From positions 2,108,001 through 2,172,000 of the forward strand of contig NZ_CP104558.1 in assembly GCF_025398035.1 (NCBI RefSeq): DNA of 64,000 nt, read 5' to 3'. The stretch is from Rossellomorea vietnamensis (lineage in GTDB: Bacteria > Bacillota > Bacilli > Bacillales > Bacillaceae_B). Below, in pieces: positions 48,337-50,574 of this stretch; position 1 is the first letter of the stretch, and each line of letters opens with the position of its first letter. Below the pieces are notes generated by a model. The model ran no database searches. It saw only the letters and a list, made by a program, of their open reading frames with translations, and was not told where the DNA came from. A program made the position numbers and the translations under genes.

Positions 48337-48592
48337 GTTTCCTTCTGTCCCTCCTTTCAGGATACTGACACCATCTCTACGCGCGCCCGCTACACGCACG
48401 TTGTTGGTGTTGTTTTCTCTCTTCTTTCTCTTAAGATCTAAAGTCTGTTTTCGCTTGGGTTCCATGGGTGATTCACATCGTTTTGGGCAAGGGAAATAAG
48501 GGGTCACCAGGTTAAGACAAGACCCTTGAATCATGTTGTTTTCTATCTTACATATGTATGCCCCCATTCACCCTCAACCTTAATATACTGAC
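48337..48592. other. Intergenic region upstream of the leader-controlled ABC operon
   Basis: About 255 bases with no convincing gene or terminator. A locally GC-rich stretch (48378-48408, with CGCGCGCCCGC) is followed by pyrimidine runs. A minus-strand frame at 48283-48567 encodes a basic, low-complexity peptide overlapping the hydrolase gene and is not supported. Confidence 0.5.
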
Positions 48593-48621
48593 TTGATTTA
48601 AAACTGGATACCGTGTGATAC
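48593..48621 (+). promoter_or_regulatory. Sigma-A-type promoter for leader-ABC operon
   Basis: TTGATT (48593-48598) and TGATAC (48616-48621) are separated by 17 bases. Transcription would start near 48628, giving a leader RNA of about 200 bases before the ABC gene. Confidence 0.5.
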
Positions 48622-48717
48622 AAGTTTTCCGATTCAATTAATTATCAGAAAATTAACTTTATTTTTTACCAACCCCATCATACAATGAATATATCGAAAT
48701 TAAAGGAGGCTGTTTTC

Positions 48718-48774
48718 ATGAGAAACATTGCGATGGTAACCGTACGAACATATAAGGGTGGAACGCCTTTTTAA
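48718..48774 (+). CDS. 18-codon regulatory leader peptide
   Basis: Start ATG at 48718-48720 with AAAGGAGG upstream (48702-48709), a better site than that of the main gene. The peptide is MRNIAMVTVRTYKGGTPF, ending at TAA 48772-48774. Its last codons (48749-48761) are complementary to the loop-forming strand that pairs with the ABC gene's ribosome binding site. It is therefore a leader whose translation should control ABC expression, as in bmrB-bmrCD of B. subtilis or classical erm/cat leaders. This role is inferred. Confidence 0.7.
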   Translation: MRNIAMVTVRTYKGGTPF

Positions 48775-48825
48775 CGTGACGGTCTTCCCCCTTATATGCG
48801 TTTTGTGAACTAACGCATAAAGGGG
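48749..48825 (+). promoter_or_regulatory. Mutually exclusive RNA hairpins (translational attenuator)
   Basis: Three segments are visible. Segment 1 is CATATAAGGGTGG (48749-48761, inside the leader), segment 2 is CCCCCTTATATGCGTT (48787-48802) and segment 3 is AACGCATAAAGGGG (48812-48825). Segment 2 can pair with segment 1 (10 contiguous pairs plus two) or with segment 3 (14 pairs, one bulged A), but not with both. Segment 3 holds the ribosome binding site AAAGGGG, six bases from the ABC start. No T-run follows, so control is probably translational. Confidence 0.75.
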
Positions 48826-48831
48826 TATGTT

Positions 48832-50574
48832 ATGACTTTTCCTGTGAAAAAATTTCTTTCGTATTACAAGCCGTATCGTTCAATTTTTTTGATTGTGCTG
48901 TTCAGTGCTTTGATCACGTCTTCCCTGACTCTCGTTTTTCCGCTCCTTGTCCGTTATGTGACGAAGGATGTTCTGGCCGGAAGTCTTTCTACAGCTTTTG
49001 AGGATGTTCTTTGGGTCGGCGGTGTGATGGTGGTTCTTGTCGTTGCTCAAAATGTCGGGAATTACATTGTGGATTACAAGGGGCATGAAATCGGGGCACG
49101 AATGGAAACCGATATGAGAGGTGAGTTATTCGCTCATCTGCAGAAGCTGTCTTTCCGTTTTTATGATAAAGAGAATACGGGCCGGTTGATGAGCCGGGTG
49201 ACGAATGATCTGTTGATGGTCTCGGAGCTTTATCATCACGGACCTGAAGATTATGTGAAATACCTGGTTCGTTTTCTTGGGGCGTTTGTGATTCTGTTCT
49301 GGATCAACGCTCCTCTTACCTTGACCGTTTTTTGTTTCTTTCCGGTCCTCGGGTTCTTCTCCCTTTATTTCAATAAAAAGTTGAACCGTGCGCTGACGGA
49401 TAATAAAGAGCGGATCGGAGACATCAATGCCCAAGTGGAGGATTCCTTATCAGGCATCCGGGTCGTTCAGTCGTTTGCCAATGAATCTCTTGAAATCAGG
49501 AAATTCAATGTGGAGAATGAACGTTTTTTGGAAAGCCGAAAAGGAACCTACCGTGCAGAGGCGTACTTCTATAACGGGACGGAAGCATTCATTCAGCTGA
49601 TTACGGTCACCATTGTCATCTTCGGGTCCATTCAGATTGTGAATGCGTCCCTTGACCTGGCCGACTTGATTACGTTTCTTCTGTATATCGGCTTTATGAT
49701 CGAGCCCATCCAGCGGCTCACTCATATGAGTACTCAATTTCAAGAAGGTGTGACAGGGTTTCAGCGATTCATGGAGATCATGAATATCAAACCTGACATC
49801 GAGAATGCCCCTGATGCAAAGATTCTTTCAAGGGTAGAGGGACATATTTTATTGAAGAACCTATCATTTCATTATGATTCTGCCTTAGGGCCTGTATTCA
49901 AGGATTTAACTCTTGAAGTCCTCCCAGGGGAATACGTCGCGATCGTCGGACCATCGGGAGTGGGAAAAACGACGCTCAGCTCCCTGATATCCCGTTTTTA
50001 TGACGTTTCTGAAGGTGGGATTTTTGTAGATGGGGAAAATGTGAAAGACCTGGACTTGAATTCTCTCCGAAGCAACATCGGAATTGTACAGCAGGATGTG
50101 TACCTTTTTTCCGGCACTGTCATGGAGAATATCCGTTATGGTCAACCTGAAGCAACCGACGAAGAGGTGATGAAGGCGGCAAAGCAAGCGAACGCCGATG
50201 AATTCATTACCCGTTTGCCACAAGGGTATCATTCCGAAATCGGTCAGCGCGGCGTCCGGTTATCAGGCGGTCAGAAGCAGCGGCTCAGTATAGCCCGTGT
50301 ATTTTTGAAGAATCCGCCCATCCTCATTCTTGATGAGGCGACGAGCGCCCTTGATAATGAAAGCGAAAGCATCGTCAAGGAATCCCTGGAGTTACTGGCA
50401 AGGGGCAGGACGACGCTCGTCATCGCCCATCGTTTATCGACGATCCGTAACGCAGGAAGAATCGTGGTGTTGTCAGATGGAAGGATTGTCGAGGAAGGGA
50501 CACATGAAGCGCTGCTCGAGCAGAATGGTCAATATTCCAGACTGTATTCGAAGCAGTTTGAGGTTCAGGTATAA
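48832..50574 (+). CDS. ABC multidrug-type exporter (half transporter)
   Basis: A 580-residue homodimeric-type exporter: an N-terminal membrane domain with six TM segments (about 1-310) and a C-terminal nucleotide-binding domain. The NBD has Walker A GPSGVGKTT (about 372-380), Q-loop IVQQDVYLFSG, signature LSGGQKQ (about 476), Walker B ILILDEATSA and the H-loop AHRLSTI. The half-transporter probably acts as a homodimer. Its start is only six bases from a ribosome binding site hidden in a hairpin, and a leader peptide precedes it. It is probably a drug or antibiotic exporter induced by ribosome stress (inferred). Confidence 0.9.
   Translation: MTFPVKKFLSYYKPYRSIFLIVLFSALITSSLTLVFPLLVRYVTKDVLAGSLSTAFEDVLWVGGVMVVLVVAQNVGNYIVDYKGHEIGARMETDMRGELFAHLQKLSFRFYDKENTGRLMSRVTNDLLMVSELYHHGPEDYVKYLVRFLGAFVILFWINAPLTLTVFCFFPVLGFFSLYFNKKLNRALTDNKERIGDINAQVEDSLSGIRVVQSFANESLEIRKFNVENERFLESRKGTYRAEAYFYNGTEAFIQLITVTIVIFGSIQIVNASLDLADLITFLLYIGFMIEPIQRLTHMSTQFQEGVTGFQRFMEIMNIKPDIENAPDAKILSRVEGHILLKNLSFHYDSALGPVFKDLTLEVLPGEYVAIVGPSGVGKTTLSSLISRFYDVSEGGIFVDGENVKDLDLNSLRSNIGIVQQDVYLFSGTVMENIRYGQPEATDEEVMKAAKQANADEFITRLPQGYHSEIGQRGVRLSGGQKQRLSIARVFLKNPPILILDEATSALDNESESIVKESLELLARGRTTLVIAHRLSTIRNAGRIVVLSDGRIVEEGTHEALLEQNGQYSRLYSKQFEVQV

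What the first reader, a model, noticed from the sequence alone, without database searches (positions are those of the whole stretch)
48593..50574. Leader-peptide attenuator controlling an ABC exporter
An 18-codon leader (MRNIAMVTVRTYKGGTPF) with a strong ribosome binding site precedes the exporter. Its last codons pair with a strand (48787-48802) that otherwise pairs with and hides the exporter ribosome binding site (48812-48825). When ribosomes cover the leader, the hiding hairpin should form and the exporter should be off. If leader translation fails, the leader pairs with the middle strand and frees the site. This is a compact sensor of ribosome inhibition, similar in purpose to bmrB-bmrCD but apparently translational and with a different peptide.
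Basis: partly seen in the sequence, partly recalled or inferred. Interest (0 to 1): 0.72.

Follow-up and report, generated by a model that had tools for sequence, protein, structure and literature searches.

The report
Leader-peptide switch for a drug exporter
A short 18-codon decoy gene in front of a bacterial pump gene folds its messenger RNA so that the pump should be made mainly when ribosomes are held up early in the decoy, and the same device turns up in front of several kinds of likely antibiotic-defence genes in related bacteria.

Summary
In this Rossellomorea-like genome an 18-codon ORF with a strong SD ends 57 nt before a 580-aa ABC half-exporter. Its last codons (seg1) and the exporter SD strand (seg3) both pair with the strand between them (seg2). 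The leader is present at 13 of 13 genus orthologs, 30 of 30 in an order sample and 19 of 25 homologs in the Paenibacillus family. 2:3 covaries, 1:2 shows double changes, and a second leader class has all three strands rewritten (UGGAGGG/CCCUCCA/UGGAGG). Lys codons in seg1 are AAG 35/35, against 8/56 elsewhere in the leaders. Sister leaders precede GNAT acetyltransferases, isochorismatase-like hydrolases and one APH-like kinase; 81 of 94 leaders are exactly 18 aa. Rfam has no match. In masked folding, a ribosome past codon 9 hides the target SD in every class. In exporters a ribosome at codons 4-6 favours the open form; which early codons help differs by class. Best reading: a translational attenuator that turns on defence genes when ribosomes stall early, a new variant of the erm/toiL kind. 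Induction and inducer are untested.

The parts
48681..48686 (+). probable promoter -10 box TACAAT (start of transcription near 48693)
   Evidence: read by eye; similar box at the same place in relatives (by eye). The consensus scan found no sigma-70-type promoter, so this is inference.
48702..48709 (+). leader Shine-Dalgarno AAAGGAGG
   Evidence: sequence; conserved in the 16-row and 50-row alignments
48718..48774 (+). leader ORF, 18 codons, MRNIAMVTVRTYKGGTPF, stop TAA
   Evidence: ORF read in 50 of 50 leaders of A5 (rows chosen by model R1), 42 of them 18 aa
48739..48743 (+). 5' arm (ACCGU, codons 8-9) of an optional competing hairpin with 48779-48783
   Evidence: in the minimum-energy fold; at least 4 of 5 pairs in 38 of 50 leaders; no covariation test was run on it
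48749..48763 (+). segment 1, CAUAUAAGGG(u)GGAA in leader codons 11-16; pairs with segment 2 in the ON form
48779..48783 (+). 3' arm ACGGU of the optional competing hairpin
48785..48802 (+). segment 2 UUCCCCCUUAUAUGCGUU; pairs with segment 1 (ON) or segment 3 (OFF)
48812..48825 (+). segment 3 AACGCAUAAAGGGG, contains the exporter Shine-Dalgarno
   Evidence: covariation of 2:3, 0 of 500 shuffles
48832..50574 (+). ABC half-exporter, 580 aa (PF00664 + PF00005)

Best explanation
This is a cis-acting translational attenuator. Ribosomes initiate strongly on an 18-codon leader. In normal growth they run past codon 8-9 and cover segment 1, so segment 2 pairs with segment 3 and hides the exporter SD (OFF). 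If ribosomes are slowed or stopped on early codons, segment 1 stays free, takes segment 2 as it is transcribed, and the exporter SD stays open (ON). The fixed leader length works as a ruler for early ribosome stalling rather than through one dedicated arrest peptide. Shown: anatomy, conservation, RNA-level selection, compensatory change, sister copies before other gene families. Inferred from folding: switch point and direction. Inferred from gene content: that the signal is translation-inhibiting antibiotics and the exporter is a defence pump. That it is a translational attenuator of some form I put near 0.85; the ruler form carries the lower figure below.
For: Exporter and leader go together: 13 of 13 genus orthologs, 30 of 30 in a 299-genome order sample, 19 of 25 homologs in the Paenibacillus family. 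2:3 covaries: 6 pairs and 14 cells changed on both sides, 0 of 500 shuffles as high. 1:2, register anchored: 544 of 560 cells paired, double changes without any mismatch in L185, L274 and L286, and with mismatches elsewhere in L275, L277, L279, L280, L282; 0 of 10000 re-pairings reach the own pairing. A second class has all three strands changed, 10 of 10 loci examined. Lys codon in seg1 AAG 35/35 versus 8/56 elsewhere in the leaders. Masked folding of 50 leaders: median 1:2 is 0.78-0.87 at codons 4-6, 0.06 at codon 8, 0.01 at codon 9, 0 from codon 10. The WR class holds 1:2 at 0.85-0.97 for codons 2-8 and 0.01 at codon 9. Of 44 parsed sister units 25 precede a GNAT, 14 a hydrolase, 4 a second GNAT kind, 1 an APH-like kinase.
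Against: No expression, toeprint or induction data. 1:2 shows no excess covariation in the 49 distinct leaders of A5. In exporters a ribosome at codons 1-3 gives no more 1:2 than none at all (medians 0.42, 0.41, 0.33 versus 0.41); in the window codon 3 gives 0.03 and codons 4-6 only 0.29-0.68. SD accessibility is modest everywhere: at most 0.18 in the window, median at most 0.34. GNAT leaders open at codons 1-3 (0.29-0.37 versus 0.11) but not at codons 4-7 (0.05-0.10); hydrolase leaders are as open with no ribosome as with an early one (0.29 versus 0.25-0.31); all. In the WR class the SD opens again when the ribosome stands on the last codons and stop (0.32-0.52), because the stop abuts seg2. 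Masked folding ignores kinetics, pseudoknots and tertiary structure. The exporter's substrate is unknown.
Confidence: 0.7

Rival explanations
1. Specific-arrest attenuator: a particular drug (for example one whose stalling depends on the nascent residues) arrests the ribosome at a set codon in the leader, as in ermC or tlrB; position matters because of a peptide motif, not because of generic early stalling.
For: Leader N-terminus is partly conserved (M-[RK]-[NK]); Thr or Ala stands at the place of residue 5 in 25 of 44 anchored leaders, which for phenicol-like stalling (rule recalled) would put the P site at codon 6, inside the exporter ON window. The most favourable codons differ between gene classes.
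Against: Residues 4-9 vary widely within and between gene classes while length and RNA segments stay fixed. I ran no composition-controlled test for an arrest motif.
Confidence: 0.2
2. Pure untranslated-leader switch: the leader acts through whether it is initiated at all, so any fall in initiation opens the exporter.
For: Folding of RNA that ends before segment 3 gives 1:2 near 1.0 with no ribosome. Hydrolase leaders are as open with no ribosome as with an early one.
Against: The complete, untranslated RNA is bistable and the window favours OFF (0.18 versus 0.82); the WR class also favours OFF untranslated (2:3 0.76).
Confidence: 0.12
3. Transcription attenuator: one of the hairpins is a terminator.
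For: bmrB, vmlR and tlrB in Bacillus use termination. In the window four U follow the 1:2 helix after CG.
Against: No terminator-like site in 48400-49000 (at least 5 T in 8 required); no longer U-run directly after either hairpin in the window or in the aligned relatives (by eye).
Confidence: 0.05
4. The leader is a real small protein or a translational-coupling start, and the RNA pairing is incidental.
For: The ORF is conserved with a strong SD.
Against: Leader stop is about 50 nt from the exporter SD; Lys in seg1 is always AAG and changes to R or E keep the pairing; peptide ends differ completely in the WR class.
Confidence: 0.04

Closest known systems
ermC / ermB leader attenuation (passages seen in PMC4191407, PMC5118997, PMC12121999; segment details recalled)
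   Same: Short leader ORF, SD-hiding structure, rearrangement by a stalled ribosome, control of translation.
   Different: Here the leader's own last codons are the ON strand and mimic the target SD; no arrest motif is known; targets are an exporter, acetyltransferases, hydrolases.
toiL-topAI of E. coli (PMC12121999: abstract and passages)
   Same: uORF that hides the downstream ribosome site and senses several classes of ribosome drugs by stalls at early codons, including the start codon.
   Different: No sequence comparison was made; toiL and the topAI ribosome site share one hairpin and Rho takes part; a toxin-antitoxin target.
bmrB-bmrCD of B. subtilis (PMC4191407: passages)
   Same: Leader ORF before an MDR ABC exporter; ribosome as drug sensor.
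   Different: bmrB has 53 codons and acts by transcription termination; loss of its start lowers expression.
vmlR, cplR and tlrB uORFs (PMC9226507, PMC10201436, PMC6851288: passages)
   Same: Gram-positive uORFs with SD-sequestering strands and drug induction; the very short ones are thought to sense drugs with little context specificity.
   Different: All three combine with a transcription terminator; different targets and uORF lengths (for example MRI, MIN).

Membership tests
Leader-peptide translational attenuators (erm/cat/toiL kind) | translatable leader ORF with its own SD upstream of the target | tested here: met
   50 of 50 exporter leaders in A5, rows picked by model R1; 44 of 45 other units parsed. 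Translation itself not measured.
Leader-peptide translational attenuators (erm/cat/toiL kind) | hairpin that hides the target SD, conserved by compensatory change | tested here: met
   (0 of 500 shuffles)
Leader-peptide translational attenuators (erm/cat/toiL kind) | alternative pairing that depends on ribosome position in the leader | tested here: met
   by folding only: (in one search the late-ribosome closure is clear, the early opening is weak or class-dependent); pair conservation
Leader-peptide translational attenuators (erm/cat/toiL kind) | induction by ribosome-targeting drug | not testable with these tools
   needs reporter experiment
erm leaders proper | controls an rRNA methyltransferase | tested here: not met
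   targets are exporter, GNAT, hydrolase, APH-like
bmrB-type transcription attenuator | intrinsic terminator in or after the leader | tested here: not met
   0 terminator-like sites in 48400-49000 (consensus scan only)
any Rfam 15 family | match at gathering score | tested here: not met
   window: 0 matches; 14 relatives: only four tRNAs
streptothricin resistance enzymes (for the sister genes) | GNAT matching Sat or hydrolase matching SttH at curated cut-off | tested here: inconclusive
   GNAT: Sat4 19.5 bits versus cut-off 380, so not a Sat4 member; hydrolase: PF00857 107.9 bits, SttH itself not compared

The most novel reading that the evidence does not exclude
One leader type, an 18-codon ruler that reports ribosomes held before codon 8-9, has been placed before exporters, acetyltransferases, hydrolases and a kinase across Bacillales and the Paenibacillus family (and on plasmids), forming a scattered defence regulon with no regulatory protein, tuned to a class of natural translation inhibitors still to be named, perhaps amine-rich ones such as streptothricins.
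Probability: 0.37. Interest if true: 0.8.

Novelty: new variant of a known kind. Interest (0 to 1): 0.66.

Why it matters
It would be a widespread family of ribosome-sensing leaders in soil Bacillales that is absent from Rfam and from the papers I could search. It gives a sequence handle (three covariance models) for finding inducible defence genes of unknown substrate. It poses a clean question: can a fixed leader length, without an arrest peptide, make a general sensor of early translation failure? The hydrolase and GNAT targets point to enzymes whose antibiotic substrates could be searched for directly.

Tried and rejected
Leader SD pairing with the leader end (0:1) as a conserved helix: 74% of cells and no signal in exporter leaders, so rejected there. 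It is strong in the five GNAT leaders, but with too little variation to prove it.

The ACCGU:ACGGU hairpin: at least 4 of 5 pairs in 38 of 50 leaders, broken in others; no covariation test was run; kept as optional.

The first free-register count of 1:2 changes inflates double changes because the register slides; only the anchored recount is used. In one search segment 2 was chosen per leader as the best partner, which favours own pairing; cross pairing uses the same chosen strands. 60 rows entered, 56 distinct; two GNAT rows of the alignment were dropped.

Weak R1 hits (weaker than E 1e-10): 19 rows. One was already known (L128); 13 were fetched, of which 3 were real sisters (L187, L189, L190) and 10 looked like chance (L188, L191-L199); 5 were not examined. 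L195 lies before a chloramphenicol acetyltransferase (my recognition) with its own ordinary stem. R2 hits at E <= 0.05 include six exporter leaders and chance rows such as an ATP synthase gene (my recognition). Before the sister count I left out L231 (no readable gene), L240 and L243 (GNAT gene, leader not readable) and L245-L249 (chance); L226 did not parse. R3 search of 398 genomes gave 16 hits at E 0.004-0.05, none followed up; used only to get a centre. In one search the leader of L269 was read from an internal ATG (15 aa). Plasmid copy L293 gave no R2 match and no parsable leader; 5 of 11 plasmid hits were fetched. A search of viral contigs for the GNAT found nothing.

Full report
WHAT IS THERE. 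The window lies in a Rossellomorea-like genome (97% exporter identity to R. vietnamensis). At 48718-48774 an 18-codon ORF with SD AAAGGAGG precedes, by 57 nt, a 580-aa ABC half-exporter (48832-50574; PF00664 and PF00005; related by sequence to Sav1866). Leader codons 11-16 (seg1), a middle strand (seg2, 48785-48802) and the strand with the exporter SD (seg3, 48812-48825) can form either 1:2 (-22.6 kcal/mol hairpin) or 2:3 (-19.7 with flanks). Energy alone is weak evidence: 7 of 200 shuffles fold as well. The three-strand arrangement fits 1 of 115 candidate starts scanned in the window and 0 of 3000 shuffled upstream regions, but 597 of 20000 shuffles of the middle strand alone; I changed the criteria once, after a stricter version missed the window locus.

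IT TRAVELS WITH THE EXPORTER. In the genus, 13 of 36 genomes have the exporter at 73% identity or more, and a covariance model of the leader (R1) hits upstream of it in 13 of 13. In 299 genomes of the order, 30 have the exporter at E <= 1e-195, and R1 hits next to it in all 30 (a draw of 397). In 245 genomes of the family that holds a Paenibacillus lautus-like genome (G958, exporter 100% identical to L052), 25 have the homolog at E <= 1e-190: 14 carry the YKGG-type leader (L271, L278 and L282 look degenerate), 5 the WR type, and 6 none that I could see (L284, L285, L287-L290, among the lowest-identity rows; read by eye and a simple ORF scan only). Of the 80 named loci kept (best 80 of 581) I found leaders in 11 (L032-L035, L037-L039, L043, L052, L053, L064). 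The rest, mainly Chloroflexi, Chlamydiae, cyanobacteria and Clostridia, and also Paenibacillus alkalitolerans (L036), showed none by eye; a few have little upstream sequence.

THE RNA IS UNDER SELECTION. On 49 distinct leaders 2:3 shows 6 pairs and 14 cells changed on both sides, 0 of 500 shuffles as high. 1:2 is 98.7% paired in its 11-pair core but shows no covariation beyond shuffles there, as expected if seg2 is locked by two partners. Adding the Paenibacillus-family rows, with register fixed on the Tyr codon, 544 of 560 cells pair and double changes appear (A-U to C-G, G-C or U-A; U-A to C-G or G-C): without any mismatch in L185, L274 and L286, with mismatches elsewhere in L275, L277, L279, L280 and L282. 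0 of 10000 re-pairings of 27 distinct combinations reach the own pairing (seg2 was chosen as best partner, a mild bias). In L286 seg1, seg2 and seg3 have all changed together. A second class (L038, L043, L053, L064, L266-L270, L295) has UGGAGGG-like / CCCUCC / GGAGG-like strands, with seg2 directly after the stop codon in 10 of 10. Within leaders, the Lys codon in seg1 is AAG 35 of 35, against 8 AAG and 48 AAA elsewhere (45 distinct leaders, one without an anchor dropped). In sister leaders the Lys before Gly is AAG 28 of 29, against 15 of 87 elsewhere. Sequences are related, so these are not independent counts.

SISTER LEADERS BEFORE OTHER GENES. Weaker R1 hits revealed leaders of the YKG-T kind before a GNAT acetyltransferase (L128-L130, L189, L190) and an APH-like kinase (L187; PF01636). 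In G028 and G015 the GNAT unit lies divergent from, and next to, the exporter unit. A GNAT-leader model (R2) hits 56 of 397 order genomes at E <= 0.05, chance rows included. Among 45 sister units put into, 44 parse: 25 GNAT, 4 of a second GNAT kind, 14 isochorismatase-like hydrolases (PF00857) and the kinase; units left out are listed under Tried and rejected. The GNAT is nearest to spermine/spermidine acetyltransferases of known structure. By my tally, 78 of 397 genomes carry one or more such units: 41 with a strong exporter-type leader (exporter gene itself confirmed in 39; G349 and G368 not looked at), 42 with a sister unit (downstream gene not readable in G246 and G254), 5 with both. This assumes that the two draws of 397 are the same. 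Leader length is 18 aa in 42 of 50 exporter leaders and 39 of 44 sisters. Plasmid records carry them too: R2 hits upstream of the gene in 3 of 4 tested (L291, L292, L294), and L295 has a WR-type leader on a Paenibacillus plasmid.

HOW IT LIKELY WORKS. I masked a 29-nt ribosome at each codon and computed pair probabilities. For 50 exporter leaders, median 1:2 is 0.41 with no ribosome; 0.42, 0.41 and 0.33 at codons 1-3; 0.78-0.87 at codons 4-6; 0.44 at codon 7, 0.06 at codon 8, 0.01 at codon 9 and 0 at the later codons tested (10, 12, 14, 16, 18), where the SD is held in 2:3 at 0.93-0.97. For the window the ON form is 0.18 with no ribosome, 0.49, 0.47 and 0.03 at codons 1-3, and 0.29-0.68 at codons 4-6. 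RNA ending before seg3 forms 1:2 almost fully with no ribosome or one at codon 1, 4 or 6 (0.99 or more for the window), and 0.45 at codon 8, so the order of transcription favours ON unless a ribosome has passed. The WR class switches between codons 8 and 9 (1:2 0.91, then 0.01), but its SD opens again when the ribosome stands at the end of the leader (0.32-0.52). GNAT leaders open at codons 1-3 (0.29-0.37 against 0.11 with none) and not at codons 4-7; hydrolase leaders are about as open with no ribosome as with an early one; both are closed from about codon 9-10 on. The common rule is therefore that a ribosome beyond codon 8-9 shuts the target; how much an earlier one helps differs by class. 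That predicts induction by agents that hold ribosomes early. Which agents is unknown.

COMPARISON WITH WHAT IS KNOWN. It works like ermC and, closer still, E. coli toiL, which senses several drug classes through early stalls (abstract and passages, PMC12121999). It is not bmrB-like in mechanism: bmrB acts by termination (passages, PMC4191407), and no terminator-like site was found here. vmlR, tlrB and cplR (passages) mix termination with SD hiding. Rfam 15 has no match in the window or, tRNAs apart, in 14 relatives. Search listings showed no paper on this leader; I read no paper whole, and subscription journals are mostly not held. The streptothricin idea rests on gene content only: acetylation and hydrolysis by isochorismatase-like SttH are the validated enzyme routes (passages, PMC11702664), while the GNAT scores far below the Sat4 cut-off and SttH was not compared.

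VERDICT. A real, conserved translational attenuator, new in sequence and in its set of targets as far as I could search, of a known kind. Function in vivo is untested.

Noticed in passing
L013 and L014 (G028 C15, G015 C2), L129/L130: GNAT unit and exporter unit, each with its own leader, are divergent neighbours: a small two-gene defence island.
   Followed up: partly
L214, L218-L220, L222, L223, L228, L232-L234, L237, L238, L242, L244 (ORF behind the leader): A conserved isochorismatase-like hydrolase (LLIIDAQQELI.GN) of unknown substrate sits behind the leader in 14 of 44 parsed sister units.
   Followed up: partly
L225, L227, L236, L239: A second GNAT kind (NWEEAI..SV.E.Q..FIASNLYSIAEVQF) also has the leader, with its own strand sequences (in L227 GGGGAUAACG and GCGUGGUUCCCC).
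   Followed up: partly
L195:361-506: A probable type A chloramphenicol acetyltransferase (my recognition) with a CCTCCTAAAT...ATTTAGGAGG stem and a short leader, like the classic cat arrangement; reached by a chance-level model hit.
   Followed up: no
L135, L138, L146: Exporter leaders with about 30 extra bases between leader stop and segment 2; the three strands are kept.
   Followed up: no
L142 and L290: Exporter matches with one in-frame stop, possibly decaying copies.
   Followed up: no
L291, L292, L294, L295 (plasmid records): The leader units occur on plasmids of Bacillus arachidis (typed mobilizable), Cytobacillus spongiae, Lysinibacillus fusiformis and Paenibacillus cellulositrophicus.
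   Followed up: partly
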